A stretch of 64,000 nt of DNA from Ornithodoros turicata (taxonomy: Eukaryota; Arthropoda; Arachnida; Ixodida; Argasidae): the NCBI RefSeq assembly GCF_037126465.1, contig NC_088210.1:11182011-11246010 (forward strand). Reading direction: 5' to 3'. Within the stretch, counting starts at the first letter, position 1; every line of letters starts with the position of its first letter. A program made the translations under genes and the position numbers. The notes under the pieces were generated by a model. It saw only the letters and a program-made list of their open reading frames with translations, was not told the origin of the DNA and searched no databases. Positions 1,844 through 61,333 of this stretch are shown here, piece after piece.

Positions 1844-4600
1844 ATGGGACAAGTATTCCTTCAGTGGAACTGTCGAGGCCTCTAGAGTAACATTGATGAT
1901 GTACACGATCTTTTTGAAAAGTACAGAGCTGTCTGCTTCTGCCTGCAAGAAACATACCTACACGAAGAAAACTTAAACGCTTTCCGTCGCCATAATGTTT
2001 TCAGGAAGGATCGCACAGACAGCGCACGTGCATCTGGTGGTGTGGCTGTAGTCCTTCCGCAGTGCATACTTGCAAAACACTTTCCACTCGTTACAGACTT
2101 TGAGGCAGTAGCAGTCGAAGTGTGCCTCGACAGGACTTTCCCGATATGTTCAGACTACCTGCCCCCATGAGTGGTAATAGAGTAAAGAGATTTCGAAAAT
2201 CTATGCAATCAACTCCCCCAGCCGTTTATGATTTTAGGCGTCCCGAATGCCCACAATCCTTTGTGGGGAAGTGCAAAACTAGATGCACGGGGGAAAATGT
2301 TGGAGAGGGTCCTCCTTTTGGGATCAACGCTGTCTTTTGAATACTGGGTTACATACCTATGTGAACTCTGCAACACAAATTTTTCTTCCATAGACATTTC
2401 ACTATGCCGCCCATCCATTTTCCAGTTTCTTGACTGGACAGTGGAACAGAATCCCCGAGGTAGCGACCATTTTCCGCTCATTATTAAATTTCGCGGTTAC
2501 ACTAACAACATAACACGTCCACCACGGTGGAAATTACAAGAGGCAAATTGGGACATATTTGAAAGAGAAGCCAATGTTATATCTTATGCTTTCCAGGGTT
2601 TGAATGTTGAGGAGGCAAACAAGTTGATCACTCATACCATTATAAATGCCGCTCAACAGTCCATTCCGCAAACATCCGGCCGACTACCCAAGCGCTCCAA
2701 GCTGTGGACGAGCAACTGTGAAAGCACACGGAAATATCACAACCGAGCGTGGGGTGTCTTTCGAAGACACCCCACTACAACAAACTTAATTGCTTTGCAG
2801 TTTGTGCTGCAGTTTGTGTTCGTTTCTCAAAGGTTCGGGGAATGTTCCCAGAGCCCACTCTCTCCATGTGCAACCAAAGTATAAGCGTGAAATGTGAATA
2901 CAAATCCCTGGGTCTCATTTTCGATGAAAAAGTGTCATTCTCAGCTCACCTGAACACCCTCAAGAAAAAGTGCATAAAATCTTTTTAAACATTTAAGGTA
3001 CATTTAGGAACATTTTAAAGGTACTCTCACACCGATCCTGGGGCGCAGATCGCGATACATTACACCGGATCTACGTCTCCACTGTCCTTTCAAAACTTGA
3101 TTACGGTTGTGTGGCGTATGGGTCAGCACGACCTTCTACTCTGAAAATGCTAGACCCTATACATCACCTGGAACTGCGTCTGGTCCTTGGAGCATTCCGG
3201 ACCTCGCCAGTCGAGGGTCTTTACGTAGAAACCAATGAGTGGTCTCTCGAAACGCGTCGGTTCTACCTGACTACGTCGTACGCATTAAGAATTAGAGGCT
3301 ACCCACAAAACCTGGCAATCGCCGCTCTAAGAGAAACACAATTTAAACAACTCTTTTTGAACAGGCCTTCAGCGGTACTGCCTTTCAGTATGCGCATGTC
3401 ACAGGACATTGAACACTATGGCTTTTCAGAATATAACTCCATGATCCTTGAGTGCAGCAAAAAAATTCCACCAGGTCAGCCTCATCCAAAACGTGATAGA
3501 TCACTCACCAGGGGGCTTAATCGCTTCATCGTCGTTACGGTCATTACAAGCTAACGAGTGGCGGGAAATTCAAAAAGGTGGGCACGTGACACATTGCGCG
3601 TGACATGTACCACGGCCTTCACGTATCGCGCGAAGAGCGCCGTGCACGTGTTTTATCACGTGCCCACCTTTTTAAATTTCCCGTCCGCTTTTTTGAATTT
3701 CCCGCCACTCGTTAGCTTGTAACGACCGTAACGACGATGAAGCGATTAAGCCCCCAGATTCGACAAACGTGATACGCCAAGCACCGTACTGAAACAGGAA
3801 TTTGAGCACCTAAGGGAAACCCTTGGCAGCCATATTGAAGTCCACACTGATGGATCAAAAACAAATTACTAGGGTTTCATGTGCTATGGTTGCAGGAATA
3901 GTCACATGTACACACCGACTAAAGAGCACCATGCCTATTTTCACTGCTGAAGTGTATGGAATAATTTTAGCCCTTAACTGTACATCTTAGAAAACCATAT
4001 AAGATCCCCAGTAGTATGCACAGATTCCCTCAGTTCTCTGCAGGTTATCTGTAACATGCACACCACTAAAAACCTGGTAGTTGATCGTGCAAGGAGCCTG
4101 GCAAGCCTGGCAATGAACGAGCTGATCATGCTGCTACGGCTGCGTTAAGAAGTGATATAACGCCGTTTGAGATACCATATCAAGATCTCAAGCTATGTCT
4201 AAAAACATGCGTCAATATCGACTGGCAGACATCTTGGGACAGGCAAACCAATAATAAACTACATAGTATCAAACCCTACGTTGGCACCAGTTCACCAGGT
4301 ATAGCCAATCGACTACATGAAGTGCTATCCTCCCGCCTTCGTCTGGGACACACATACTTGACGCATGGGTATCTTCTACGAGGAGAAAACCCACCAAAAT
4401 GCAACCACTGTTGGGAACAGCTTTCGACCATTCACATCCTCATGTAGTGTCCAGCGCACCAACAACTCCGTCAACGTTATTTTGCTTCCTTTTATAGAAC
4501 CTCTTTACCACCCCACCCAATGCTTGTACTGGGTGATGACAGTTTTATATCTCTTGAGAACGTGTATAGGTTTTTTAGGGATAGTAACTTAACAGTTGCT
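1844..4600 (+). pseudogene. LINE pol relic: endonuclease, partial RT, RNase H
   Basis: Starts MGQVFLQWNCRGL, the usual first beta strand of an APE-type endonuclease, with an in-frame stop straight after. LQET (about 1948) and the downstream GSDHFPLI (about 2460-2490) are the endonuclease catalytic landmarks. At about 2800-2850 the frame jumps from the post-endonuclease region to FSKVRGMFPEP and YKSLGLIFDEKVSFSAHL, which belong after the YADD motif; so about 1 kb holding the RT active site is deleted. LDYGCVAYGSAR and LVLGAFRTSPVEGLYVE (3100-3230) are the RT/RNase H linker. EVHTDGSKT at about 3836 and GNERADHAATAA at about 4113 mark RNase H. A CNHC/HIL/CP motif and LGDDSFISLENVYRFFRD close the protein near 4580. 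Confidence 0.8.
3512..3754. mobile_element. Palindromic MITE, 243 bp, CAG target duplication (copy 1)
   Basis: A nearly perfect foldback. Termini GGGGCTTAATCGCTTCATCG and its complement; central arms carry GGTGGGCACGTGA. It is flanked by CAG on both sides (3509-3511 and 3755-3757). It lies in the linker between the RT and RNase H parts of the LINE and removing it rejoins the LINE. A second copy of the same length, differing at a handful of bases, is at 50719-50961 and is flanked by CTG. Confidence 0.85.
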
Positions 4601-16183: not shown

Positions 16184-17179
16184 TCAATGAAGTTGATACG
16201 TTGCACAATAAACAAAGAGTACGAACATTGCCAGAGCCGACAGCGCCCCAATCACCAACTCCCATTTGCGCAGTTTCCTGTTGAAAAAGCAGTATTTTCC
16301 AACAGTTATTCCGACGAAAATCCCGGACGCGTGGCCCACCCAACTCATCCGACAGAAGATATGCCAGCAAATATCAGCTGCCGTGAGAAGCGGGATCGCG
16401 AGAAAGAAGACCACTCCATACTTGAACTCTCTGAAGCTAAATAAGACGTCTCCATAATGCGACCACAAGATGGCGTGGCAACCGCCAGCGGCGCCCGCTA
16501 GACGCAAGCTGGGCAAGAACGACGAAGCCAAGGCTCCGTAGAACACTCCCACGAAATACAACACTGGTACTTTCCATGCACTATGAACCATACCTATCGG
16601 CAGACAAACAACTAGTTCTACCAGAACATTAAAGGCAAGCGAAACCGCGTCCGTGTGAAGCAATGAATAGCTGAACTGTCGCCACATCTCGCGCATGCGC
16701 AGCGGATTGTACGAAATCGGAGATTCCAGAAAGCAATCCTGCGCGTAGGGTTCATCTTCTCGGCTGTTACACCACAGGTGGTGGTGTACGGATGATACAA
16801 TCTGAGCCGCTGCGACAATCAGGATGAAAGCCAGAGGGAAAACGACGGCGGGGTAGTCCGTTAGGGCCAGGCGAGTAATCCACAGCTGTTGACTCTCCTT
16901 GACGTAGATCTTTGCCGAAACGTGGAAGCATTTCTGAGCCGCCTTCTCCGCCTTGGTGGTGGGTCGACGGCACAAGATGATCGTGAGAAGCTGCTGCACA
17001 GTAATATCGGAGCGCGTATTCCGCTTCGCCAGTTCCAGGAGTTGGTTCCGACAGTGACTTGGTATGGCGGCAGAATGATCGATCAAGGTCCGTTGCAGCT
17101 CGGACGAAGAAATGCTGCCGTTTTCCTTGATGTCCAGTTGCTCAAGAACAGTAAACCAGTACTCGCGCAAATCTTCCAT
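16184..17179 (-). CDS. Rhomboid-family membrane protein, EF-hand type, catalytic serine lost
   Basis: Intact 331-codon intronless gene. The start is the ATG in GCCACCATGG, a full Kozak match; in-frame ATG 17194 would add five residues. Residues about 12-33 form one EF-hand-like loop (DIKENGSISSSE), as in RHBDL1/3-type rhomboids. Hydrophobic segments near 110-131, 172-194, 200-220, 227-247, 253-273, 280-297 and 309-326 give the seven-segment plan of metazoan RHBDL proteases. The loop motif WRQF, then LLH, AFN, GAAGG and GHASG align with GlpG landmarks: His145 kept (H175), His150 is Ser180, Asn154 kept (N184), the nucleophile Ser201 is Ala231, and His254 kept (H283). Known rhomboids cut membrane proteins within the bilayer with a Ser-His dyad; without Ser this one should be inactive and may act as an iRhom-like binder (inference). 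No introns suggests a retrocopy. AATAAA lies 71 bases downstream. Confidence 0.85.
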   Translation of the reverse strand: MEDLREYWFTVLEQLDIKENGSISSSELQRTLIDHSAAIPSHCRNQLLELAKRNTRSDITVQQLLTIILCRRPTTKAEKAAQKCFHVSAKIYVKESQQLWITRLALTDYPAVVFPLAFILIVAAAQIVSSVHHHLWCNSREDEPYAQDCFLESPISYNPLRMREMWRQFSYSLLHTDAVSLAFNVLVELVVCLPIGMVHSAWKVPVLYFVGVFYGALASSFLPSLRLAGAAGGCHAILWSHYGDVLFSFREFKYGVVFFLAIPLLTAADICWHIFCRMSWVGHASGIFVGITVGKYCFFNRKLRKWELVIGALSALAMFVLFVYCATYQLH

Positions 17180-17206
17180 GGTGGCTGACCCCATCTGAGA
17201 AGTCAC

Positions 17207-18080
17207 AGCCCTTTCGAGTTTCCGCAGAGAACGCAGCAGTTTGAAGCCTTTTTTTCTGCAGACTGCTCAGTCCCTAGGGCGTATTCCGAATGAGCGTTGG
17301 AAGCGAAGGCTAGCCTGTCCATGGTACCGACTTTTGTCGATGAAACGCCGCACTAAGAAATCGAAACACTACGTTGTTATACCATGATTTCCTGTGCGCA
17401 GCGCATTTGTATAATAGCCACTGTTTATGCAAATGTGCGAAAGCAGCAATTCAATTTCTTAGAGTGACTCTTCAGTTGCCAATGATTAAAATACAACGCT
17501 TAAGAGACAGGCTGTACCATTTTTCGGTTATCGTGGAACTATACACTTGAGGAAGGCGTTGCAAGTCGTTGTGACCTTGGCTACATTCGAGGATAGAAGG
17601 CAAGTGGCGACTGTGGTAGACATGTTTCCCAGTTGCAAGGTCGTCCAGTATATCACAAGGGGGCGTACGTACCCTGGACGGCAAGCGTTCCGCAGCAGAC
17701 GCAGTCGCAGGCAAACTTCTGCTGGCCAACACAAGCTTAAAGCTGCTCGCCAGGCAGGCGTGCTAACCTCACGCAGGGTGATCTGGCCGGCCCGATGGTT
17801 GCCTTCTCCGGGCGGTTTTTGTACATGTGCTTGCGCAGTGACAATACGCCAGACAGCGAAAATGTTGGGCGCGATGGGTTCTGATGTTTGCTAAATGAAA
17901 CAATCTCTCCAGACATGTTAATCCCGAACAACGCCGAAGCGCGTTGTATATCTGGACGTACGACGTCGTACGTACGTCTTGATGTCCTTGGTACGTCCAA
18001 TAGATATCCCAGATCGGATACAGCCCATCAGATATCCCAGATGGATATCTAAGGGATATGCATCTGGCGTATGACACGAC
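17207..18080. other. 5' flank of the rhomboid gene, with an interspersed repeat
   Basis: A GC-rich stretch with no supported ORF. 17760-17885 (minus) matches 62570-62700 (plus): both have CCATYGGGCCGGCC followed by TCACC-GCGTGA. 17950-18070 has GTACGTACGTC and repeated AGATATCCCAGAT words. Any promoter should be just above 17210 but no TATA box is obvious. Confidence 0.45.
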
Positions 18081-20315: not shown

Positions 20316-20572
20316 CAGCTGATCGACGCGCGCTTTGCCGCCTTGAATGTAATCGACCGCAAGTGCCAATGTTTTTTTCGGCCCACAGTCACCTGTGGGA
20401 TTGGCCAATGGGTTTCAGCCCATATTCATAGAAAGTGACCTTCATATACAAATATATTATACAAATTTTGATAAGATACTTAAGTTTTGCCTTCAAAAAC
20501 ATAGTTAAGCACAGCGATAAAACTGTTGTAATTGAGGACACCTACTTGGGTGGATATTAATACCAGTATATA

Positions 20573-20809
20573 CACTCTTAAAAATGAACTTCACCGCATA
20601 GCATGCTCCTAGCCAACCATCACCCCGAATGACAACGTTCTCGCCCTAGATTTGTTGAAAACGGGAGGAGGAGCCTATTTTGTGTCATTATGCACGGCAC
20701 AAAATAGGCTCCTCCTCCCGTTTTCAACAAATCAGGGGCGAGAACGTTGTCATTCGCGATGGTGGTTGGCTAGGACCGTGCTACGTGGTGAAGTTCATTT
20801 TTAAGAGTG
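20573..20809. mobile_element. CACTCTTA MITE family T, complete, 237 bp, TA duplication
   Basis: CACTCTTAAAAATGAACTTC at each end, TA at 20571-20572 and 20810-20811. Arms continue CACCGCATAGCATGCTCC and TAGCCAACCAT almost to the middle, so the whole element is a hairpin. Confidence 0.92.
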
Positions 20810-20939
20810 TACCCATAATGTTCCACCATGGGTGGTGAAAGATTAGATTTAAATGAAATTATTCCAATACTTGTGACTGAAAGGAGCCTTCGCAACTCTG
20901 GAATAAAGTCTGTTAAGTAATCTGACAACTAACACTTAC

Positions 20940-22601: not shown

Positions 22602-22882
22602 CTTTTTTTAAGATTTCGTGTTAGCGCCGCGAAGCGACTGTGGCTATGAGCAGCGTACAGATGCGGGCAGATGGAGAGAGGTCAGCGGGAAGGAGTGGGT
22701 GACAGGGGTGTTAGTATGCGTCCTGGGCCGACTTCAGAGGGGAACTGTGCCGACATTCGTTTGGAAAGTCTTCGGAAAACCCAGGGAAAACCTCAGACAG
22801 CACAGGCTGTTGCAGGATTCGAACCCACCACCTCCCAGTCTTCAACACGACCTTGATTCATCACCAACGAGCTCGGCCATGT
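22602..22882 (-). mobile_element. tRNA-derived SINE, type A
   Basis: Minus strand: head GCCGAGCTCGTTGGTGATG, B box GGGTTCGAATCC, central GAGGTTTTCCCTGGGTTTTC, GTCGGCACAGTTCCCC, GTCGGCCCAGGACGCATAC, tail CATAGCCACAGTCGCTTCGC and GGCGCTAACACG, A-rich end. Same family as 49352-49652 and 61040-61333. Confidence 0.85.
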
Positions 22883-33365: not shown

Positions 33366-33680
33366 AGTATTGAGCCTATCAAAAGGCCGAAAATCATAAC
33401 GCCGAACTATCAGAAGGCAGAAAGCCAAAAGCCCGAAAAATCATAACGCCGAACTATCAAAAGGTCGAAAGCCAAAAGGCCGCAAACTCATAACGCCGAA
33501 CTACGTATCAGAAGGCCGAAAGCCAAAAGATCGAAAAGCATTACGCCGAATTGTCGGAAGGCCGAAAGTCAAAAGACCGAAAAAGCATTACGCCGAACTG
33601 TCAGAAGGCCGAAAATCAGAAGGCTGAAAATGGAAAGGCCAAAGAGACACAGGGGTGAACACCCCAGTGAATGACCACTC
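33366..33680 (+). mobile_element. Solo MULE terminus (AAGGCCGAAA array)
   Basis: Starts GAGCCTATCAAAAGGCCGAA, the same outer end as the right termini of the MULEs at 52378-53225 and 56490-57541 (read inward), then about 20 imperfect units of AAGGCCGAAA-tca / AACGCCGAACTATCA. It ends with GTGAATGACCACTCA, which also adjoins the array inside the 52.4-kb copy. The other end is absent. Confidence 0.8.
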
Positions 33681-33856
33681 ATAATGGGATAATGTAGATT
33701 TTGAAAACGTTTTGTGGAATTAAGTAACTGGAATGCATAGCATTTTGGTGCTCGGAAATAGACTACCCAGATAAGATAAAAAATAAAACCATGATATGAA
33801 AAGAAAGTGTATGGCGGGTGAATGGAATGAACTGTAGAGGAGATGGTATTTCTCTA

Positions 33857-34105
33857 CACTCTTAAAAATGAACTTCACCGCATAGCACGCTCCTAGCCAA
33901 CCATTATCTCGAATGATATGGTTATCTGCCCTGATTTGTTGAAAACAGGGGGCGTACGCCTTTTCTGTGACAATTATGAACAGCATAAGTGTCACAGAAA
34001 TGGCGTACGCCCCCTGTTTTCAACAAATCAGGGCAGATAACGATACCATTCGAGATAATGGTTGGCTAGGAGCGTGCTATGCGGTGAAGTTCATTTTTAA
34101 GAGTG
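33857..34105. mobile_element. CACTCTTA MITE family T, complete, 249 bp, TA duplication
   Basis: CACTCTTAAAAATGAACTTC at both ends, TA at 33855-33856 and 34106-34107. Arms agree nearly perfectly (GGCGTACGCC, TCAGGGCAGATAAC), indicating a young insertion. Confidence 0.93.
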
Positions 34106-35242
34106 TACGTTTGTGAGTCCCCGAAAGTGATTTGGACAAATAACAGTCTGAATCGTTTGCTCTATGCAGAAATAAACTTGCATAAGATCTCTATGACAAG
34201 ATCTGTAGGTTTCTTGTTGGTTGTGTTTTTTTTTTTTTTTTTTTTCACTTCGCCTGCAACTTTCTCTACCGTATAGGGATTATTTTGGAGTCGGAGGCGA
34301 ACGGCGTGATATGGCACGGCGAGCGTGGCGCCATCTACGATCGAGAAAATCGTGAATCAGAGTTGCTCCCCAACTGGTATGGCCTCTTAAGTAAATGCCC
34401 TTTTTTGGAGGCGCCCTAAAAGACTCCACGGAGGAAAATAGAGTCCCTATAAATCCAGATAAGCGTTCTGCGCATATCTCCTCTCTCGGCTACTCCACTC
34501 GGAAAGCCGCATTGGCTACTGCGGCGCCCTCCCTCTTCCCTCTCACTGCCTCCTCTCATGCGTAGAGACGCACTTGCACAGCGTGTTGAAGGCCATGTCA
34601 TGATGCGCGCGATAAGTGTGGCCGTGATGTTCGAGCATTCGCAAAAGTGTTTTGTTATTCTCTACGAACTCCGTTCTTCTCGGAAATGCGAGTTGCATTT
34701 TGCGCACGTATCTATAGAACGAGAAGTTGAAAAACGTTCCGGAAAGGGTAGCAGGGCATGACATCTTGCGCACATGCAATTCTCCCCCTCTGCGTCCCGA
34801 GAAAGCCCGCCGATCACGCGCTATTTAGAGAGCGCGTGCTGTACCTCGAGTGCTATAGCGTTCCATTGACAAGGGAAATACCCGTGCTACCCCGCCGGGA
34901 GCATGCACGTAACTCCACTCAGCGCTGGGCAAAAATTGCTCTCTCAATCGAATTCGCCAACAGATACGCCTATGTTCAGTGTCAAGGGAAATTTGACATG
35001 AAGATTGCTGATCTTGTTATTCTCAGCCATGGAACAGTATATACCGCGTTGCGAGCTTACGATCTTCAGCGGGGGTCGGTGAAAGTCACTATGTTTTTTT
35101 TTTTTACGTTTCATTTTTTTCCTCAAAAGGAAACGAGGACCGGGTGCAGAACGGATTAAGACCCCTGACGATGAACCTGGTCCTCCAGTGGCAGTCACAG
35201 CGATTTTAGCAACACAACAACAGTTTACAGAGCAACATACAT
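34106..35242. other. Non-genic, one shared repeat
   Basis: T21 run at 34225-34246. 34460-34590 is copy 2 of the repeat at 20165-20315. The rest shows nothing; the frames at 34758-35159 are not recognised. Confidence 0.45.
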
Positions 35243-47555: not shown

Positions 47556-48427
47556 GGTGGCCGTGCAGGGGCTGAGCCTTTCTTTCGTTAGGAAGTGGGT
47601 CGCTCGTTTCCTGTTTTGGGAGACCAGTCCCTATATAATCTGCCTCCTCCGTAGGCATTCAGTAAAAGTGACCTGCCCTATTGAAGCTCATACATCAATG
47701 GTGTTGCGGTTGTTCTCATTGTCACAGCTCTTCACGGAATTCGGCCTCGTCTTCCGTCAAGTGGATTATTACTGTAACAGGTGCAGGGCATTTCGTGGGA
47801 ACGGCAATTACGCAACACGTTCAAAATGACTTATGAAAACAAAGCAATTAAATGCACATCAAGACGTATGGATGTTTCGAATATCAAAATAAAATACAAT
47901 ACATCACAACATGACACCATCTGTCCGTGACTGTATACGCCGCTTATAGACACAGTTTCTTCGGAGCGCTAACACGGAACTAAAAAAACAAAACTAACAC
48001 GGAAGAAAACAACATTCCGGATAGCTGTGCAACCTTTGGTACTCGCAATACAGGACTCTGAAATACAGGAACAGCTGTGTCGCTACGCATTGTGTGCAGA
48101 CTCTCACACAATTCTTTCTCTGTGTTTGAAAGTTATGAGCATATAATATGTTAGTATTTCGAAATTATCCCCATTGCAACGCGAACCCTCTTGAGATGTT
48201 TAGGAATATTTACAATCTGAACGAGTTCGTATGCTCGAGAACGAGATCCTCCACTATAAGAACCTTCATTGGTGGAGGCACCGTGGCGAAAGGTCAGACG
48301 TCTTGTGCCAGCGCCATGTATTAAATGGTAGTGTGGCCATTAGAAGGAGCCTAAAAAAGAGTCTCGACCTGTCATTCAAACTTGGAGACATTTCATTGGT
48401 TGCCGTTTTCCATGGGGACCGCCGTAT
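47556..48427. other. Non-genic; SINE A tail; MULE target
   Basis: 47925-48000 is a type A SINE tail fragment (TACGCCGCTTATAGACACAG, GCGCTAACACGG). A frame from 48231 (HWWRHRGERSDVLCQRH...) runs into the MULE at 48428 and, on the other side of it, would remain open for about ten codons to 51800; no domain recognised. Confidence 0.4.
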
Positions 48428-49351
48428 GGCTCTAGGACATTTCGGTACAGGACGTTTCGGTACGATCATTTCGGTACTCGGACATTTCGGTGCACGGACA
48501 TTTCGGTACACGGACATTTCGGTACACGGACATTACGCTGCACGGACATTTCGGTACGAGGTCGTTTCGCTAGGGCTACCCACACCGTGTCTTCCCATTT
48601 CGCCTATTCCCATTTTGCCTAATGCTTCTTAGCAGATTATCTCGCCATTCCTTAGCAGGTTCACCGACCTCGAACTGCACGGGGTCCCATTTGGCCTAAA
48701 GTATGCTGCAGACAGTCCCACTTCGCCTACTAATCCGTGTTACGTAAGAAAGAAGGCGGTCCTCTGGCATGCTGCCAAAAGTCAATTTCGGATCTTCATA
48801 TAACTTTACATGCAACCTTGTTGGTTTCACTGAAGCATGAGGTCTGTATTTATAATTCATATTACACTAGGGTTTCTTCCCTCATCTGTTGGTTCACAAA
48901 TATAGACTGTGCAAGAGTGAAAACATAGTTTTTATTTACATTTTTTTAAATTAAAAGGGCAGCTTTGTTTTCTGCGCTTCAAAATTCTTCCAAATTTGCA
49001 GCTCTACTCAATATGCATTAGATGTCCCACGGCATCGATGTACGACATCATGTCCCGTTCGCCATTCTGAATTATTGACTGCTCAATGACATTCTTAAGT
49101 AGCATCACAACTTTTTATTAATTCCAACGCCCTACGCCGGCTTTTTCAACTGACCCTAAGTGATTTGGGAGAAATTCACAGCACACTCTGGAGGAGACTA
49201 GAATTTGTACGACACCGACCAGAAAAGGAATTCCTGTCCGAAAATATTTCCGTGTATAACTCCCACCGTTAGATAATGCGCAGGCCCTCTTCAGAGCACC
49301 TTTTTACCGAATAACGCGCGCGTTATACACCGGAAAATACGGTAGTTAGGT

Positions 49352-49652
49352 TGAACGTGGGTTAAGGCGTCTCGCTCGGTGGTGTCGTGCTAACTGGGAG
49401 GCGGTGGGTTCGAATCCTACCACCGGTTGTGCTGTCTGAGGTTTTCCCTGGGTTTTCCGAAGACTTTCGAGACGAATACCGGCACAGTTCCCCCTGAAGT
49501 CTGCCCAAGACGCATATTAACCCCCTATCCCCCTACTCCTTCCTGCTGTCCTCTCTCCATCTGTTCTCATCTGTACGTCGCTCATAGCCACCTCTCATCT
49601 CCACAAAGCCACATCTCGCTCATAGCTTCGCGGCGCTAACACGAAAGAAAAA
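49352..49652 (+). mobile_element. tRNA-derived SINE, type A (nested in MULE)
   Basis: GGCGTCTCGCTCGGTGGTGT head, B box GGGTTCGAATCC, GAGGTTTTCCCTGGGTTTTC, GGCACAGTTCCCCC, GTCTGCCCAAGACGCATA, tail TCGCTCATAGCCACC...CTTCGCGGCGCTAACACG, A10. A short internal duplication of TCTC-ATAGC separates the tail in two. Confidence 0.88.
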
Positions 49653-50423
49653 AAAAAGAGTTAAATTAAACACGACTATAGTGACACCAGTTGCCATATT
49701 TAACATCGCTCAGGTGACACTGAACATGGCAACAAGCCTTGTTTCATACGTCATGCTGTCCATCAGGAGTCACTATGTAAAATGTTTGTAAAATGTTTTT
49801 GTTATATTTGTACATTATGTTTACACCTTATATTTGCAAATGTAAAGGGTCTTTGTTTCGAACGACGTAAGGTAGTTGTCCGACGAGCACATTCATTTCT
49901 TGCACACGTCATCATCAGGTTGGAGCCTGTAAGTAACGCCCACTTGCCGACAGTCCCGTTTTGCCTAATGAGATTGCACGGCAGTCCCATTTCGCCTAAC
50001 GGCAGTTACCCCTCCCGCCTCTTTAATCCGATAATCCGGGTTAGGCAAAATCAACAATATTGCCAGTTAGTGGGTTACTGATGAATAATGCATTGGTATA
50101 TCATCGTGAACAGCATCTGTGTGGTGACACCACTATAACAGGGTGTTTTTTCAAGCGGTACAGAATTAATGATAAAGCTACGCGAGCCCTACTTGGATGC
50201 GGTTTTCGCATGCGCTGGCGGAAATCCCACGCCTTGTGATTGCGTGACCGTGTGTGTGATTTTTCAGTTTTAGTTTTGTGTTCTTTCTTTCCTTTTCTTT
50301 TCTACTCTTCTTAGTCTTCCCCTTTCCTTTTCTTCTTTTCCTTTTGGTTTTTCTTCTTCTTTGTCCTCCCCTTTTCATTTCTTCTTTTTCTTTCCTTTTC
50401 TTCCCCCATTTTCCATTTTTTGG

Positions 50424-50490
50424 AATAGCAAGCCGACCTCCGCTGGCTTACCTTTCCTTTCTTTTTTCTTAATAAACATATTCCCCTCAC
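50424..50490 (+). repeat. LINE 3'-tail fragment, copy 2
   Basis: GGAATAGCAAGCCGACCTCC, GCTGGCTTACCTTTCC, TTCTTAATAAACATATTCCCC. See 10338-10400. Preceded by a T/C-rich tract (50275-50420). Confidence 0.6.
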
Positions 50491-50718
50491 GAGATTTTTT
50501 CTTTTTTTTGTTCTAATTCGAGTACTAATTGATTATAATTTATCAGTCGACTTCTTCATCAAAGCTTTTGATGACAAAAAAATAAAATTTCAGAAAGCAG
50601 GCGATCCTTTTTTTATGTCCACACCCTGCCCTCGAAATCTTCAACGCCGGCGTGAGGTTTAAATTATTCATCTCCCAAATTTTTGACCGTGGCCCCGCTC
50701 ACGTTGTTTTCGAATCTG

Positions 50719-50961
50719 GGGGCTTAATCGCTTCATCGTCGTGACGGTCGCTACAAGCTAACGAGTGGCGGGAAATTCAAAAAGGTGGGCACGTGACACA
50801 TTGCGCGTGACGTGTACCACGGCCTTCACGTATCGCGCGAAGAGCGCCTTGCACGTGTTTTATCACGTGCCCACCTTTTTAAATTTCCCTCCCGCCTTTT
50901 TGAATTTCCCGCCACTCGTTAGCTTGTAACGACCGTAACGACGATGAAGCGATTAAGCCCC
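50719..50961. mobile_element. Palindromic MITE, 243 bp, CTG target duplication (copy 2)
   Basis: GGGGCTTAATCGCTTCATCG at both ends, CTG at 50716-50718 and 50962-50964. Same length as the copy at 3512-3754, about 97% identical by eye. Nested in the MULE at 48428-51763. Confidence 0.88.
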
Positions 50962-51595
50962 CTGATTTGTTAAAACCATGTGATATATAGCGCGGAAGAT
51001 AAATAATGAGATTGTCCACTTGAATGTCCATTGTTCATGAATTGTCCGCTCTACGTTGGGTAGACGGGCTGTCTGCCTGGGTAGAACGGCGGCACATTAC
51101 ACGAATATTTACCTGCTGATTTTTCTTTGTCTCAGAGTTCTCACACTAAAACATTTTGCGGATGAATATTCTCGCAAAGTAAATTTGCTATGTAATGACA
51201 GAAAAAGTGTGGTGTATTGATTGAATAAACTCGTCTGTCTTGCTGCATTTCTTTCTGCTTATTTGTATTTTTTCTCTTTTGCTACATTTTCCTCTCGTTT
51301 CTTTCCTTTTCTTGGGAACAGCAAGCCGTTTGTAGTGGCTGATATTTCCACCTTCTCTTTTTCTTTTCTTTATGCCATTGAACTTATCTGCTCTCATGAA
51401 CCAGCACACTTTCGCCAGTCCGTGACCACAGCATGCAGCGATTCCTCCAAGAAAACGCGAACTGTAATAGTGGTACAAAAACATCGACAAGCGTAGTAGG
51501 TCTATATGTTGCCGGCAACTTGTACCGAAGCGTCCGAAGAGGCGATAGCATCTCATCAATTTATCACTACCACGGAAGCGACGTGACAACATGTA

Positions 51596-51763
51596 GAGAG
51601 CCCTAGCGAAACGTCCTTGTACCGAAATGTCCGTGCACCGAAATGTCCGTGTACCGAAATGTCCGTGTACCGAAATGTCAGTGCACCGAAATGTCCGTGA
51701 ACCAAAATGTCCGTACCGAAACGTCCTGTACCGAAAGGTCCTGTACCGTAACGTCCGCATACC
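51596..51763 (-). repeat. Right terminal array of the 3.3-kb MULE
   Basis: Nine imperfect units of TACCGAAATGTCCGTG (complement of the left-end unit), some changed to TACCGAAACGTCCT. Serves as terminal inverted repeat with 48428-48565. Confidence 0.85.
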
Positions 51764-51964
51764 CCGCCGTATGACAGCAAAATTTCTCCGAAATGTATGA
51801 TGGTGCTTGGAACGGCGAAGCGGAGATTCCGCGACAGAAATTTATCACAAACTACTTTAATTTCATGCTGTGAATATATCCTCATGGGCACATTTGCAAG
51901 AGCACCTTCAACTTTCGCTCCGCCATCATTATTTACGCGAAAACGAGATGCTTCGTCGCTACCG

Positions 51965-54440
51965 CCCTTACAAAAATAAGTTTAGCCAATAATAAATAAG
52001 TTTTGTCAATCTATTGACATCCACTGGACGTCCTATTGCCTGAATAGATTTCCTTTGGACTATTGAATATAGAGCCTGTCTGTTTCAAGTCTATAGACAT
52101 CTTTTGGACTATCGTACTATCGTGTATCCTTTCTTTGGCCTGTAAATGGGAGATTGGCACGAACAGTCTATAGACAACCTGCTATAAAAAGGAAACAGAT
52201 ATCTGCCATTGCCTGTCTATTGACTTTCTATAAACTGGCGATAGACTGGCCACTGGCCGACATTCCCCTTCTACCATCATCATATGCCCCTTATTCGGGT
52301 TCATGAACTGTGATCAGTTGAAGCCGAACCTGGAATTCTGCTGCGATCCTGTTGTGTGAATGTGATGTTTTTTTACCGGGTGGCAATCATAAGGCCGAAA
52401 CTGACAAGGCCGAATTATCAAAAGACCGAAACTCGAAAGGCCGAAAAATCAACACACCGAAAAATCGCAAGGCCGAAAACTCACAAAACCGAATTATCGA
52501 AACGCCGACAAATGAGGAACCCAGGATACGAGAACTGGTATTCCAACTGCGATAAAAAAAATTAGCTCTACAGACTAAATAGAATCAACTTGTTGGGAAT
52601 TAACACAGCAAATAACTCGTTTCACCGAACATCGCATTAATAAAGTACTTTCGATAACTTAGGGGAAAACAAAAAGGAAAAGTAGAGATATGAACCACTG
52701 TGTCATTGTGTGTTTATTGTAGACGGTGGCAATCAGGTTGGGGTTACCAAATGTAGAGAAACACCATGTCCTCCACAATTCATTCAGTGGGTGATACAAT
52801 TCATTCACTGGCATTCACCTACCGCACACTTTCTTTTTGTAGTAAACATGTTATAGATTATTGCTAGATTAGGTTGGCAATATGAGGTTATAGTTTATTG
52901 CTTTTTTTTAAATGAAAAGAGCAATTCCCTTTCAGTGGTCATTCACAGGGATGCTTACACTAGGTCTTCTGTTTCTTTCGCCATTTTATTTCGATGTTCG
53001 GTTCGGTGTTCTGATCTTCGGTCTTTTGACTTTCGGCCTTCTCATTGCTCGGCCTTATTATTTTTCGGCCTTTTGGCTTTCGGCCTTCTGACACTTTGGC
53101 GTTCTGATTTTTCGTCCTTTTGGATTTCTGCCTTATGATAGTTCGGCGTTCTGATTTTTCGGACTTTTAACTTTCGGCCTTATGATAGTTCGGCGTTATG
53201 ATTTTCGGCCTTTTGATATGCTTCCTTTTTTTACCTGTGTTGAGAAGCAATGCGTGGCCATCATTGGCACACGTCTAGGATCATTGAGGATAATCCTTAG
53301 TGCCATCTGCAATAGCTTAACCAGTGCAAGGGCGTAACAAGAACGTAGCACGTGCAGTTAGAAAGGCATATGCAGCATCGTCATCGCCTTCCTAGCAGAG
53401 AAGAGATAACATATATTGCTTGACTTTCGAGCTTCCGCAAATTCGAGTGCCCTGCTTGCCTCTGACGAGTCAGCATGAAGAATGAGGTGTTCCAGCTTAA
53501 TTCGGTTATGCATACGTCTAACCCCGAAGTGAGGAATTGTTTGGAGTAGTAACTCAACACCAAGATAACGCTTGTGTTTGTAACTGCTTTCGGTCTGAGA
53601 CATTCAGTAGGTAGATTGAAAGTCAAACTTGTGCAGTGCGAAATTTGCCATGCAGGTTCATATTGATGCAGGTAGCCATCTCACTGCACAAGTTTGACTT
53701 TCGATGGACCTACTGAATGTCTCAAACCGGAGGCAGTTATAAACACTGGCGTTATCTTGGTGGTGAGTTAATACTCCAAGCTATTCTTTACTTCGGTCTT
53801 GAATGGATGCTTGAATGGATCGAATTAAGCAGGATACCTCACCCTTTATTCTGACTCAGAGGCAAGCATGACACTCGAATTTGCACAAGCTTGCAAGCCA
53901 AGCAATATATGGTATCTGTTTTCTCTTAGGAAGGAGATGCCAATGCTACGTGCTCAGAGGTGGATGTCCTGAAAGCACTAGAATCAAGCAATTGCGAATG
54001 GCACTAATGATTATCCACAATGACCCTAGACGTGTGCCAAGGATGACCACGTATTGCTTCTGGCATAGGTTTAAAAGCATCGATACATATTTACACAACA
54101 GGAACTCAACAGAATTCCAGATTCAGATTCAACATATTACAGTTCATGAATTCGAATTGGGTGAATATAATGATGACAGAAAGCAATCGTGGATCAGTGG
54201 CCAGTCTATTGTCAGTCTATGGAAAGTCAATAGACGGCAATGGCAGTTGATCATTTCCTTTCTATAGCAGGTTGTCTATAGACAGTTACTGCCAAGCTCC
54301 CATTGATTGCCTATGGGAAGGAAAAAAGAGGTGTCCAAAGGTGGTCTATTCCCATAGACCACCTTTGGACCGTCTATAGCTTCAATGGACGTTTTGTCCA
54401 ATGCTTGTCTATTGGTTGACCAAACAATTTTTCACAAGGG
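51965..54440. mobile_element. Large palindromic element (about 1.6 kb) split by a MULE
   Basis: Ends CCCTTACAAAAATAAG and (complement) CCCTTGTGAAAAATTG. Left arm 51965-52377 plus 53236-53638, right arm 53684-54440; centre spacer 45 bases. The arms match in order: GTCTATAGAC words, AGTTCATGAA, ACACAACAG, CCTAGACGTGTGCCAA, CAAGCAATATATG, GTTATCTTGGTG, CACAAGTTTGAC. Each arm carries a diverged open region (left, minus strand: MSQTESSYKHKRYLGVELLL ... SSNICYLFSARKA), not recognised. A small relative with CCCTTAC ends is at 61479-61711. Confidence 0.8.
52378..53225. mobile_element. MULE with AAGGCCGAAA-array TIRs, 848 bp
   Basis: Left end GGGTGGCAATCATAAGGCCG, right end (complement) GGAAGCATATCAAAAGGCCG. 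Target duplication TTTTTTTACC (52368-52377, 53226-53235; 9 bp in the other copies, the tenth base lies in a T run). Arrays of AAGGCCGAAA/AACGCCGAAC units at 52388-52510 (plus) and 53000-53215 (complement). Middle (52515-52990) matches 56755-56965 of the next copy (TTCCAACTGCGATAAAAAA, CATCACTTAGGGG-like). No coding capacity. The unoccupied target is kept in the other palindrome arm (GGTTTAAAA, 54068-54076). Confidence 0.92.
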
Positions 54441-54943
54441 CGTTAGGCATAGTGAGGACCGCTACCCCCAGAAAATAGCAAGAAAGACGCTCCTGAAGCG
54501 CAAGATTTTACTTTATATAATTGAATTTTATTCATACATACATCTTGTGCATTTTCGATTCAATCTACTACATTACGTGATTTACAAGTTCATACCGGCA
54601 GCCGTCTGCTACGAAGAAGCGGTTCTGCCGCTGTCCTGGCCTATCACTTCTGCCAGCAACCATTCCTGCAATTCTGAGCCTTACCAACATGCCTCTCTCC
54701 ATGCAGATGGCGTTGATAAAAGTGGTCGGAAAATCCGTCGTTTGGTCTGTCACCAGCGATCTCCGTTTCAATCCAAATCAATCGAGTTTCTCCAAATTGG
54801 TGGCACAAGGGTGAGGTATAAGTACTGGATGGCCTGCAATAATAGGGACCTGTATTTCGACCTATGATTGGCTAGATACCTCAAAAAGGGGCTGGAGCCT
54901 CAGGTATATGCAGGTCCCATTAATGGCCAGACTGCCTTTTAAT
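54441..54943. other. Non-genic, nothing recognised
   Basis: A 160-codon plus-strand frame (54385-54867) starts within the palindrome end and has no recognisable domain. Confidence 0.35.
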
Positions 54944-55762
54944 CAGAGTTGTACGTAACGCATTGCTAGTAATCAATTACTTTTTCAGTAATTTTTTAAT
55001 GTAATCAATTAATTTTGTGAGCAAGTAATTTTCCAAGTAATCCGATTACAATTTTTGGTAATCAATTATTGAGTAATTGATTATTTGCTATGTAATGTGT
55101 TATGTAATTACTGAGTAATTGATTACTTCTTTAACCTTCTGTCAACAATGGCAACCATTTTCAGCAAGTTCTCAAGCAGCAGCTGTTCTTCTGTTCCACC
55201 ACCAGTTTGACTGAAGCAATGACGCAGAGGTCACTGACGGCCGCCTCTAGTCCACACGTGTTAGACACACGCGTTATTTCCACAGTAATACGATACAACC
55301 ACGATAATATGATGGTATGATAATATTACAACCGCGACCTACTAGAGGAACAATAAAGTAGATGACTGTATTGATAATTGTGGGAGCTGAACATAACAAC
55401 AGTAACAAAACGAAGCCGAAGTTTCGATGTTGTTTTAAATGTATGTATAAATCTGTAATAAACGCACGTATTTGTGCGCACAAATACATTTTCAAATATA
55501 TTTGTGAATTTCACTTATCATGTATGTTGGTGTCTGATAGTAGAATTTGCAACAAGAGTTGCATGGTTGCATTCATGCAGGCTTGTTGGCTTTGCTATGG
55601 CCCACAATTTAAAAGTAACAGGAAAAGTAACTTGTTACATTTTCAATCGGTAACGTATTACATTTTTGATGAAGTAATTTGTAACGGTAAAGAATTACTT
55701 TTCGTGCAGCAGTAACAGTAACCGTAATCAAGTACTTTTTTCGAGTAACGTGTACAACTCTG
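54944..55762. mobile_element. Non-autonomous hAT transposon, 819 bp, 8-bp duplication CTTTTAAT
   Basis: Ends CAGAGTTGTACGTAACGC and (complement) CAGAGTTGTACACGTTAC; perfect 8-bp duplication CTTTTAAT at 54936-54943 and 55763-55770. Subterminal arrays of AGTAATTGATTAC (54969-55125) and AAGTAACTTGTTAC-type words (55610-55745). Middle non-coding. Confidence 0.93.
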
Positions 55763-56139
55763 CTTTTAATACACGGCACTGTCTTCGGCTTTCCGCTCCC
55801 GCCACCTGCATCACCACACATCACGTGATACCTAACGTTGTACCACGACACCTTCGTAGCTCGCTGTTCCTCCGTGACTCCCCGCACCGCGATATTCGGG
55901 ACACACGGCGCATGAAATGAAATTCTACTCGTGTTGCCGTGAATAAACACCGTTCGAGCAGAAAGGCTGAAGTGCTATTTGTTTGCGTAGCTCGGTCTCG
56001 GAGGGTGTACTCTTATCTGTACACGTGCGTCTCTCTGAGTGATACGCCTCTGCCATACACCGCCTCCCCGACGGATATGTTACCGAAGAGGCCAGAGGGA
56101 GACTTCGCAGCCAAATGAATTGCAAGCGTGCGGTATTAC
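55763..56139. other. Non-genic, partly element Y
   Basis: From about 55930 a minus-strand frame (81 codons, ...RRCMAEAYHSERRTCTDKST) may continue the TTAA-flanked element; below that nothing is recognised. Confidence 0.35.
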
Positions 56140-56489
56140 GCGAACTGAACACAGTTGCGAAATATCTCACTTGAAACCGAAGATGGAATCATAAAAACGA
56201 CCTTCGAAATTTGAAAAAGTCTGGCTCCCACCGAGCAGGTGAGCAGGTGACGGCAGTTTCTTTCCATATGTGTCTGAGTAATCTGATACCGAGTCTTCGT
56301 CCATTGTTTTGTTTCGGGAATGTAACACAGCTGGTACGACCGGCGTGCTATATTACTTGTCCGCTCCATGCAGGGTGACGTAACGCGTTGGCCTTCGGAG
56401 GTGAAAGTTTCTGCGACGCCTCTCCACGTTCCTGTTTCAGTTTGATTGCTCGCTTATTTGAGACATAATTCGTCACATGAGAAAGAAAC
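56140..56489 (-). mobile_element. TTAA-flanked DNA element, copy Y (interrupted by MULE)
   Basis: Minus strand, pairs with 44850-45392 and 45934-46025. It contains ATGGACGAAGACTCGGTATC (MDEDSVSDYSDTYGKK ...), a short frame ending before 56170. It resumes on the other side of the MULE at 57542-57634, ending CGAAGTATCCCT with TTAA at 57635-57638. Confidence 0.6.
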
Positions 56490-57541
56490 GGGTGGCAATC
56501 ATAAGGCCGAAACTCATAAGGCCGAACTATCATAAGGCCGAAACTCATAAGGCCGAAAAGTCAAAACACCGAACAATCATAAGGCCGAAAACCAGAAGAC
56601 CGAAAAGTCATAACGCCGAAAAATCAGAAGGCCGAAAATTCAGAAGACCGAAAAGTCAGAAAACCGAATTATCAAAATCGAAATTAAATTTAAATTATTT
56701 AAATTTATTTATTTATTTATTTATTATGAATTATTTAAATTTAAATTAATATATTATCGAAAAATAAGGAAGCAAAGATACGAAAACTGTTTTTCCAACT
56801 GCGATAAAAAATTAGCTCCACAATTTCGGTAGAGTAGACTTGTTGTGAATTAACATCACAAATACTTTCACCGAACTTCGCGTTAATAACGCACTTTCCA
56901 TCACTTAGGGGCGCAAAAAAAGGAAAAGTAGACATAGAACCATTGTGTTATTGATGCGTTTATTGTACACAATGTGGTCTCCTGCTCCTCTTGCATAGCA
57001 GTTATGAGCCTGAAAACGCTGACGTGATCGCAGCCAATTAATGTGTTCCACCGGCGATGCCAGGCCTCAACCCCGTTTGTGATCCAGCACTGACTCAGAA
57101 CTGCATCTAATTGTTCGGCCTCGGGATAAATAGGGTGAGTAGCCGAGTGAATGACCAGGGACAAGTGAATCCTCATTCTGGACGAGATAATATGTGTGCT
57201 GCTGTACAGGGGACAAGCGCGTGGTCATTACACAGTTCTTGAAATAGAACGGTACAGAAAGTTGCAGGCTAACCGAAAAAAATAAATAAAATAAAATAAA
57301 AAATATAGAGATATTGTCTCGGCCTTCTGATCGTTCGGTATTTGGCTTTCGGTCTTATGATACTTCGGCGTTCTGATTTTTCGGCTTTAGGGCTTTCGGC
57401 CTTCTGATAGTTCGGCCTTATGATTTTACGGCCTTTTGACTTTCGGCCTTCTGATAGTTCGGCCATATGATTTTTCGGCCTTTTGACTTTCGGCCTTCTG
57501 ATAGTTCGGCCTTATGATTTTCGGCCTTTTGATAGGCTTCC
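56490..57541. mobile_element. MULE with AAGGCCGAAA-array TIRs and transposase relic, 1052 bp
   Basis: Ends GGGTGGCAATCATAAGGCCG and (complement) GGAAGCCTATCAAAAGGCCG. Perfect 9-bp target duplication GAAAGAAAC (56481-56489 and 57542-57550). Arrays at 56500-56680 (plus) and 57315-57535 (complement). An AT-rich tract (56685-56760) follows the left array. The middle holds a transposase remnant (56901-57176). The paralogous unoccupied site is GTTTCCTTC at 44909-44917 (inverted copy). Confidence 0.94.
56901..57176 (-). pseudogene. MULE transposase C-terminal relic
   Basis: Minus strand: IYPEAEQLDAVLSQCWITNG followed by VEAWHRRWNTLIGCDHVSVF and RLITAMQEEQETT. The N-x-VE-x-WH ... H(P/V)S(I/V)(W/F)x(L/F)(I/L) ... 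xxEQ pattern is the conserved segment just after the catalytic core of animal MULE (FLYWCH-associated) transposases. The DDE core and zinc finger are absent and a stop follows, so it is not functional. It identifies the array-ended family as Mutator-like. Confidence 0.7.
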
Positions 57542-57634
57542 GAAAGAAACAAAGTTGATTTCAGTATACCGTGGATGTTACACACCAACTACGATGTGCA
57601 GCAATTTTTCCACCGGTCGTTCCGAAGTATCCCT
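57542..57634 (-). mobile_element. TTAA-flanked DNA element, copy Y (terminal part)
   Basis: Complement: AGGGATACTTCGGAACGACC, CACATCGTAGTTGGTGTGTA, CATCCACGGTATAC, pairing with 44819-44908 of copy X. TTAA follows at 57635-57638. Confidence 0.65.
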
Positions 57635-61039: not shown

Positions 61040-61333
61040 TTTTTTAATTCCGTGTCAGCGCCGCGAAGCAACTGTGGCTATGAGCGGCGTACAGACGTGG
61101 ATAGATGGAAAGAGGACAGTAGGAAGGAGTGGGGGACCGGGGGGGGTTAGTATGCGTCCTGGGCCGCCTTCACGGGGAACTGTGCCGACATTCGCCTGGA
61201 AAGTCTTCGGAAAACCCAGGGAAAACCTCAGACAGCACAGCCGCGGTGACAGGATTCGAACCCGAGTCACCTCCCAGTCTCTGCGTGGAAAGTGATCATC
61301 ATCCTAACCACTATGCCACGGGAGCTGGTGGGG
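61040..61333 (-). mobile_element. tRNA-derived SINE, type A, complete
   Basis: Minus strand: CTCCCGTGGCATAGTGGTTA (A box region), GGGTTCGAATCC (B box), GAGGTTTTCCCTGGGTTTTC, GAATGTCGGCACAGTTCCCC, GGCGGCCCAGGACGCATAC, GCCGCTCATAGCCACAGTTG, CTTCGCGGCGCTGACACGG, A/T tail. Flanks GGCATATTTA and GGCGTATTTA look like a target duplication with one change. Confidence 0.9.

What the first reader, a model, noticed from the sequence alone, without database searches (positions are those of the whole stretch)
48428..57541. MULE family whose terminal inverted repeats are minisatellite arrays
Three elements (48428-51763, 52378-53225, 56490-57541) and one solo end (33366-33680) share one design: a short outer end, then an array of a 10-17 base unit, then a unique middle, then the inverted array. 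All three complete copies have 9-bp target duplications (CCGCCGTAT; TTTTTTACC within a 10-base match; GAAAGAAAC). The units differ (CGGACATTTCGGTACA versus AAGGCCGAAA) but both centre on an (A/G)(C)CGAAA core. Array TIRs may be the transposase binding sites and can expand or shrink freely.
Basis: partly seen in the sequence, partly recalled or inferred. Interest (0 to 1): 0.8.

Follow-up and report, generated by a model that had tools for sequence, protein, structure and literature searches.

The report
Jumping genes with repeat-array ends
Two families of dead "cut-and-paste" jumping genes, probably in a tick genome, have ends made of short repeats in tandem; one family still carries a scrap of its old enzyme gene, which places it in a known group of such elements, so this is a new example rather than a new kind.

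Summary
Three elements lie at the stated coordinates, each bounded by inverted arrays of a ~15.6-bp unit and by exact flush duplications (9, 10 and 9 bp). For the middle element the window holds an empty paralogous site, the other arm of a palindromic host repeat, which aligns across the junction with one copy of the duplicated target. These are real transposon insertions.

They form two families. E2, E3 and the "solo end" (a broken right half) are one. E1 is another, with a different tip and unit, and its shared CCGAAA core points the opposite way. E3's middle holds a fossil C-terminus of a FLYWCH/MULE transposase (E=1.2e-8; best other segment 0.4), so E2/E3 are MULEs, most likely of the Phantom type. 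E1's membership is inferred from anatomy only.

The design is already described: Tm1 "Mutator/Foldback" elements of root-knot nematodes have asymmetric tips, ~14-bp tandem units, mostly 9-bp duplications and a Phantom transposase. Arrays as transposase-binding sites are plausible but untested; Galileo is a partial precedent. Verdict: new members of a known kind. Genome-wide tests could not be run.

The parts
48419..48427 (.). E1 target duplication, left copy CCGCCGTAT
48428..51763 (.). E1: non-autonomous element, family A (unit CGGACATTTCGGTACA); carries nested repeats
48435..48577 (+). E1 left array, 9 units
51599..51757 (-). E1 right array, 10 units; inverted relative to the left (89% over 158 bp)
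51764..51772 (.). E1 target duplication, right copy CCGCCGTAT
52368..52377 (.). E2 target duplication, left copy TTTTTTTACC (10 bp)
52378..53225 (.). E2: non-autonomous element, family B (unit TCAnAAGGCCGAAA), inserted in the left arm of a palindromic host repeat
52387..52510 (+). E2 left array, 8 units
53001..53216 (-). E2 right array, 14 units
53226..53235 (.). E2 target duplication, right copy TTTTTTTACC (10 bp)
53660..54520 (-). Stretch holding the opposite arm of the palindromic host repeat: empty paralogous site for E2 (CTTTTAAACC in place of TTTTTTTACC, no insert)
56481..56489 (.). E3 target duplication, left copy GAAAGAAAC
56490..57541 (.). E3: deletion derivative of family B that keeps a transposase fossil
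56499..56669 (+). E3 left array, 11 units
56904..57224 (-). Stop-to-stop segment with a fossil of the C-terminus of a FLYWCH/MULE transposase (segment residues 50-91 match profile 380-421)
57317..57532 (-). E3 right array, 14 units
57542..57550 (.). E3 target duplication, right copy GAAAGAAAC
33373..33854 (+).

Best explanation
E2, E3 and the broken copy at 33.4 kb are non-autonomous relics of a cut-and-paste DNA transposon of the Mutator (MULE) superfamily, most likely Phantom type. Its ends are asymmetric tips of about 8 bp (GGGTGGCA at one end; GGAAGCAT or GGAAGCCT at the other), each followed by ATCA and an array of a ~15.6-bp unit. E1 is a relic of a second family built the same way. A transposase encoded by an autonomous copy elsewhere recognised each end, cut at the tip and joined the element to a staggered target, leaving a 9-10 bp duplication. 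Shown here: the duplications, one empty paralogous site, the arrays, the fixed distance from tip to first unit, and the transposase fossil. Inferred: that the units are repeated transposase-binding sites (about 0.55); that a regular spacing near 1.5 helical turns reflects that binding (about 0.2); and that E1 belongs to the same superfamily (about 0.75). The confidence below is for identity, not for the binding step.
For: Flush duplications at 3 of 3 complete copies against 22 of 3,000,000 by chance. Empty paralogous site for E2 aligned across the junction. MULE fossil in E3: E=1.2e-8 and 31.0 bits among 2172 segments, best other segment 0.4, best of the reversed set 0.21; 2000 residue shuffles reach at most 10.5 bits; still the best segment with three reduced profiles: 12 proteins 3.1e-5, 9 proteins 4.6e-5 (next 0.25), the 4 proteins given an organism name 8e-8 (next 0.64). 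The profile comes from 38 database proteins; 31 of the 38 carry a precomputed PF10551 (MULE) or PF04500 (FLYWCH) domain and 17 carry both. First unit at offset 10 in 4 of 4 complete family-B arms and offset 8 in 2 of 2 E1 arms; spacing 14-16 bp in 58 of 59 family-B and 17 of 17 E1 steps. The outermost unit scores 23.4-23.5 (highest 23.6) in 5 of 5 family-B arms, a level reached by 17 of the 64 units in all.
Against: No intact transposase in the window and no catalytic DDE part recovered; Pfam finds nothing in six frames of E1's middle, three minus frames of E3's middle, or the fossil. The fossil covers only 42 aligned residues, and direct searches with it found no homologue. E1's outermost right unit is not a top-scoring one (21.0 against 24.7), and E1 has no coding trace. 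Only three complete copies were seen; the genome could not be searched.
Confidence: 0.78

Rival explanations
1. The arrays are passive minisatellites that grew by slippage and unequal exchange inside ordinary short inverted ends; the transposase reads only the tip and the first unit. (This concerns the binding step only, not identity.)
For: The outermost unit is near-perfect in 5 of 5 family-B arms while inner units fall as low as 6.7. Unit number differs between arms and copies. [quoted passage not shown]
Against: Spacing stays at 14-16 bp in 58 of 59 family-B steps, and most of the 64 parsed units still score well (the matrix was trained on the same units). In Galileo the first two of four long repeats do hold transposase-binding sites.
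Confidence: 0.35
2. E1 belongs to a different transposon superfamily from E2/E3 and only converged on array ends.
For: Different tip, unit and core orientation; the shared 6-mer is at chance level (8.6% of permutations); no coding trace in E1.
Against: 9-bp duplication, GG-starting asymmetric tips outside the inverted array, and the same unit spacing (15.59 versus 15.57) fit MULE/Phantom anatomy. E1's 7-bp tips are followed by GGA in both arms, as in Tm1's order of 7-bp motif A, GGA motif B, array, although GGA is also part of E1's unit.
Confidence: 0.2
3. The structures are not transposons but inverted duplications of minisatellites.
For: Arrays alone could arise by slippage plus inversion.
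Against: Exact flush duplications, an empty paralogous site and a transposase fossil.
Confidence: 0.01
4. A Galileo-like (P superfamily) foldback element rather than a MULE.
For: Galileo has long, internally repeated ends (PMC3688188, passages).
Against: The E3 fossil matches MULE/FLYWCH proteins. P-superfamily duplications are usually 7-8 bp (recalled), not 9-10.
Confidence: 0.02

Closest known systems
Tm1 Mutator/Foldback elements of Meloidogyne (PMC3169594; abstract and passages seen)
   Same: Asymmetric 7-bp tips outside the inverted part; inverted arrays of a ~14-bp tandem unit whose number differs between the two ends; 8-10 bp duplications in 45 of 53 complete elements, mostly 9; a single transposase-encoding element found in M. 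incognita; that transposase is Phantom-type FLYWCH/MULE.
   Different: Unit sequence (CGATTCAGTATCCGC) and length (most often 14 against mean 15.6); Tm1's inner motif D was not looked for here; different host phylum (nematode).
Phantom group of MULEs (PMC6446971, table and taxonomy passages; Marquez and Pritham 2010 not held)
   Same: Invertebrate hosts, 8-10 bp duplications, ends of 18-613 bp, FLYWCH in some; the table notes a mini-satellite after the transposase ORF in aphids.
   Different: No intact transposase here, so placement inside the group by tree was not possible.
Rehavkus (PMC6446971, table passage)
   Same: 9-bp duplications, ends of 26-400 bp, a minisatellite noted ('in Cterm').
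   Different: PHD finger instead of FLYWCH; the fossil here matches FLYWCH/MULE proteins, but no Rehavkus protein was compared.
Drosophila FB and Tetris foldback elements (Tetris PMC4079207, passages; FB recalled)
   Same: Long inverted ends with internal tandem repeats and 8-10 bp duplications; Tetris is assigned to Mutator partly by duplication length.
   Different: Tetris units are ~220 bp and its transposase has not been found.
Galileo (PMC3688188, abstract and passages)
   Same: Long, internally repeated ends; transposase-binding sites found inside the first two of four repeats.
   Different: P superfamily, THAP domain; long repeats rather than ~16-bp units.
MULEs in Ixodida (PMC13359780, passages and table)
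   Same: 3 of 222 MULE-bearing arthropod species are Ixodida, with TIRs of 87-144 bp; the paper already suggests that longer TIRs may give several cooperative transposase-binding sites.
   Different: The word 'tandem' has 0 occurrences in its main text; those are transposase-bearing copies.

Membership tests
Mutator/MULE superfamily (E2/E3 family) | 8-11 bp target duplication | tested here: met
   10 bp (E2) and 9 bp (E3), flush
Mutator/MULE superfamily (E2/E3 family) | MULE-type transposase | tested here: met
   C-terminal fossil in E3 only, E=1.2e-8; the catalytic core was not recovered
Mutator/MULE superfamily (E1 family) | 8-11 bp target duplication | tested here: met
   9 bp CCGCCGTAT
Mutator/MULE superfamily (E1 family) | MULE-type transposase | tested here: inconclusive
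   none found in six-frame Pfam and profile scans of the window copy; no autonomous copy could be sought
Phantom subclass | FLYWCH finger plus MULE domain, placed by tree | tested here: inconclusive
   the fossil matches the C-terminus of proteins of which 17 of 38 bear both PF04500 and PF10551; the fossil itself includes neither domain
Foldback (structural class) | inverted ends with internal tandem repeats | tested here: met
Tm1 family | Tm1 unit and tip sequences | tested here: not met
   unit and tips quoted in PMC3169594 differ from those here by inspection; same architecture, not a member
Mutator/MULE superfamily | transposase binds the array units | not testable with these tools
   needs a bench assay

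The most novel reading that the evidence does not exclude
The array is a phased docking lattice. Transposase subunits sit on units spaced ~1.5 helical turns apart (mean 15.57 and 15.59 bp in two unrelated unit sequences), so that alternate units face the same side of the DNA, and tip plus first unit forms the cleavage site while inner units load extra transposase. Two independent families in one genome keeping the spacing but not the sequence would then be convergence on geometry.
Probability: 0.2. Interest if true: 0.55.

Novelty: new member of a known kind. Interest (0 to 1): 0.3.

Why it matters
It adds two array-ended transposon families, one tied by coding evidence to MULE/FLYWCH transposases, probably from a tick; the passages I saw of a 2026 survey of arthropod MULEs mention no arrays. 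It makes a stated open question concrete: PMC3688188 (2013; passage) says it is untested whether the tandem repeats of Foldback and Phantom elements are transposase-binding sites. Two families with different units but the same spacing give a direct contrast for such a test. Otherwise it is ordinary repeat biology.

Tried and rejected
Rejected: (1) one family for all three elements (tips, units and core orientation differ). (2) A shared CCGAAA core as evidence of kinship (8.6% of permutations). (3) A solo end. (4) Chance duplications.

Led nowhere: searching the protein collection with the fossil itself (no candidate; 3 candidates, none passing); Pfam on the fossil, on six frames of E1's middle and on three minus frames of E3's middle (no family for these); viral-contig scans for the arrays (0 matches each) and for relatives of the fossil or transposase (12, 25 and 43 pattern matches, none confirmed); genome-contig scan for the transposase (133 pattern matches, none confirmed) and for the family-B array pattern (8 stretches, all with bacterial titles, one of them with 6 matches; not examined, taken as unrelated). 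Whether the broken copy resumes beyond the palindromic insert at 33855-34107 stayed unclear (about 20 bp of similarity, then a gapped alignment).
Full report
What is there. The window carries three complete elements: E1 48428-51763, E2 52378-53225 and E3 56490-57541. Each begins and ends with an array of short units in inverted orientation. The flush target duplications are CCGCCGTAT (E1, 9 bp), TTTTTTTACC (E2, 10 bp; the poly-T run makes 9 or 10 hard to decide) and GAAAGAAAC (E3, 9 bp). Random pairs of points 0.8-3.4 kb apart in the window give a flush 9-bp match in 22 of 3,000,000 draws.

Empty site. E2 lies inside one arm of a palindromic repeat of about 2.4 kb. Removing E2 and one duplication copy, and aligning that arm with the reverse complement of the other arm, gives an alignment that runs across the junction: GATG-TTTTTTTACC-TGTG against GATG-CTTTTAAACC-TATG, with no gap at the junction and small gaps of 1-3 bases nearby. 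This is a paralogous empty site and is strong evidence for insertion with target duplication.

Two families. E2 and E3 share left arms (84% identity), right arms (83%) and about 220 bp of left subterminal sequence (79%). Its last three bases do not match the GGA tip. E1 shares no tip or unit with them: E1 left against E2 left scores 14, E1 left against the reverse complement of E2 left scores 37 (58% over 90 columns), and E1 left against E1 right scores 248. The CCGAAA core reads inward in E2/E3 and outward in E1, and a shared word of 6 or more in either orientation arises in 8.6% of 20,000 permuted unit pairs.

Anatomy of the ends. In E2/E3 the two tips differ over about 8 bp (GGGTGGCA against GGAAGCAT or GGAAGCCT), while the array starts at the same distance from both tips: first unit at offset 10 in 4 of 4 complete arms. 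In E1 it is offset 8 in 2 of 2 arms. For the broken copy the offset was fixed by my choice of start and is not counted. Parsed unit numbers: E2 8 and 14, E3 11 and 14, broken copy 17, E1 9 and 10. Spacings: family B 14 bp once, 15 bp 23 times, 16 bp 34 times and 20 bp once (59 in all; mean of the 58 below 20 is 15.57); E1 14 bp twice, 15 bp three times, 16 bp 12 times (17 in all; mean 15.59). The weight matrices were trained on these same arrays, and at the threshold used they also score 25 and 18 sites in a shuffled window, so isolated matches elsewhere mean nothing. The outermost unit scores 23.4-23.5 of a highest 23.6 in 5 of 5 family-B arms, a level reached by 17 of 64 units; in E1 the outermost left unit has the top score (24.7) but the outermost right does not (21.0).

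The transposase fossil. The middle of E3, minus strand 56904-57224, is a stop-free segment that contains NGVEAWHRRWNTLIGCDHVSVFRLITAMQEEQ. A profile of 38 database proteins finds this segment at E=1.2e-8 among 2172 stop-to-stop segments of 20 or more residues; the next is 0.4, and the best of the reversed set is 0.21. Residue shuffles of the segment reach at most 10.5 bits in 2000 tries, against 31.0. Reduced profiles still rank it first: the 12 weakest hits (3.1e-5), 9 from among the 13 weakest (4.6e-5; next segment 0.25), and the 4 given an organism name, from Photinus, Aphis and Riccia (8e-8; next 0.64). That 31 of the 38 carry a precomputed PF10551 (MULE) or PF04500 (FLYWCH) domain, 17 of them both, does not depend on the motif's letters alone. 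Searching with the fossil itself found no homologue, and Pfam gave nothing, probably because the match lies C-terminal to the Pfam domains (inference). The fossil runs towards the left (GGGTGG) arm, so the lost gene was read from the GGAAGC end.

How it most likely worked. An autonomous copy made a FLYWCH/MULE transposase that bound the ends, cut at the tips and pasted the element into a staggered target, giving 9-10 bp duplications. E2 and E3 are relics that depended on it, E1 on a relative. That the units are binding sites is inference. The closest tested precedent is Galileo, where transposase sites lie in the first two of four long repeats but not in the other two; the same 2013 paper states that for Foldback and Phantom elements this is untested (PMC3688188, passages). 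The 2026 survey of arthropod MULEs also suggests cooperative binding sites in long ends (PMC13359780, passage). The near-constant 15.6-bp spacing in two unrelated unit sequences suggests a geometric rule (1.5 turns at a recalled 10.4-10.5 bp per turn), but two families are too few to show it, and Tm1 units are most often 14 bp.

Comparison with the known. Tm1 of Meloidogyne has the same architecture: asymmetric 7-bp tips, inverted arrays of ~14-bp units in variable number, mostly 9-bp duplications, and a Phantom transposase (PMC3169594, abstract and passages). E1's 7-bp tips (GGCTCTA, GGTATGC) are each followed by GGA, as Tm1's are by its motif B, though GGA is also part of E1's unit. A table in a 2019 paper lists a mini-satellite for aphid Phantom elements and for Rehavkus (PMC6446971, passages). 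The 2026 survey lists MULEs in 3 Ixodida species, with TIRs of 87-144 bp, and 'tandem' does not occur in its main text (PMC13359780, passages). Seven literature searches (only the top rows of the longer lists were shown) listed no paper that I recognised, from title or start of abstract, as describing array-ended MULEs of ticks. The library lacks most subscription journals.

Host. The repeat family at 49393-49591 and its copies remind me of tick SINEs such as Ruka; this is recall, not a test. A rhomboid-family frame lies at 16184-17266.

Verdict. A correct observation with a partly correct interpretation: two new families of a known kind, useful as a test case for array function, of modest interest.

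Noticed in passing
54936-55770: A separate element (54944-55762) starting CAGAGTTGTACGTAACG and ending TAACGTGTACAACTCTG, with exact 8-bp duplications CTTTTAAT and several GTAATTGATTAC-like inner repeats; looks hAT-like (name recalled).
   Followed up: partly
48593-48729 and 49954-49998: Six copies (up to 2 mismatches) of a third unit, TCCCATTTCGCCTA, inside E1, all in the same direction, so not an inverted end; possibly a piece of another array-ended family. At up to 3 mismatches the window has 11 matches against 4.65 expected; 1 of 100 shuffles reached 11.
   Followed up: partly
52725-52735: The left-tip word GGTGGCAATCA recurs inside E2 exactly where its homology with E3 ends; the window has three copies, the other two being the E2 and E3 tips. 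Hints at a rearrangement or failed repair.
   Followed up: no
about 51990-54450: Palindromic host repeat of about 2.4 kb that carries E2 in its left arm.
   Followed up: partly
33855-34107: Palindromic element (95% self-complementary) with TA at its borders inside the broken family-B copy; a related palindrome lies at 20571-20811.
   Followed up: partly
50718-50967 and 3511-3760: Two copies, 96% identical over 250 bp, of a palindromic short element, one of them nested in E1.
   Followed up: no
49393-49591; 22640-22839; 61074-61278: Repeated element nested in E1, 84-88% identical to the two other copies listed, with weaker copies elsewhere; resembles tick SINEs by recall.
   Followed up: no
57249-57295 and 34226-34272: Shared 47-bp stretch ending in an A-rich tail (85% identical), possibly a retroelement tail inserted in E3 between the transposase fossil and the right array.
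   Followed up: no
16184-17266: Open frame with a rhomboid protease domain (E=1.8e-13).
   Followed up: no
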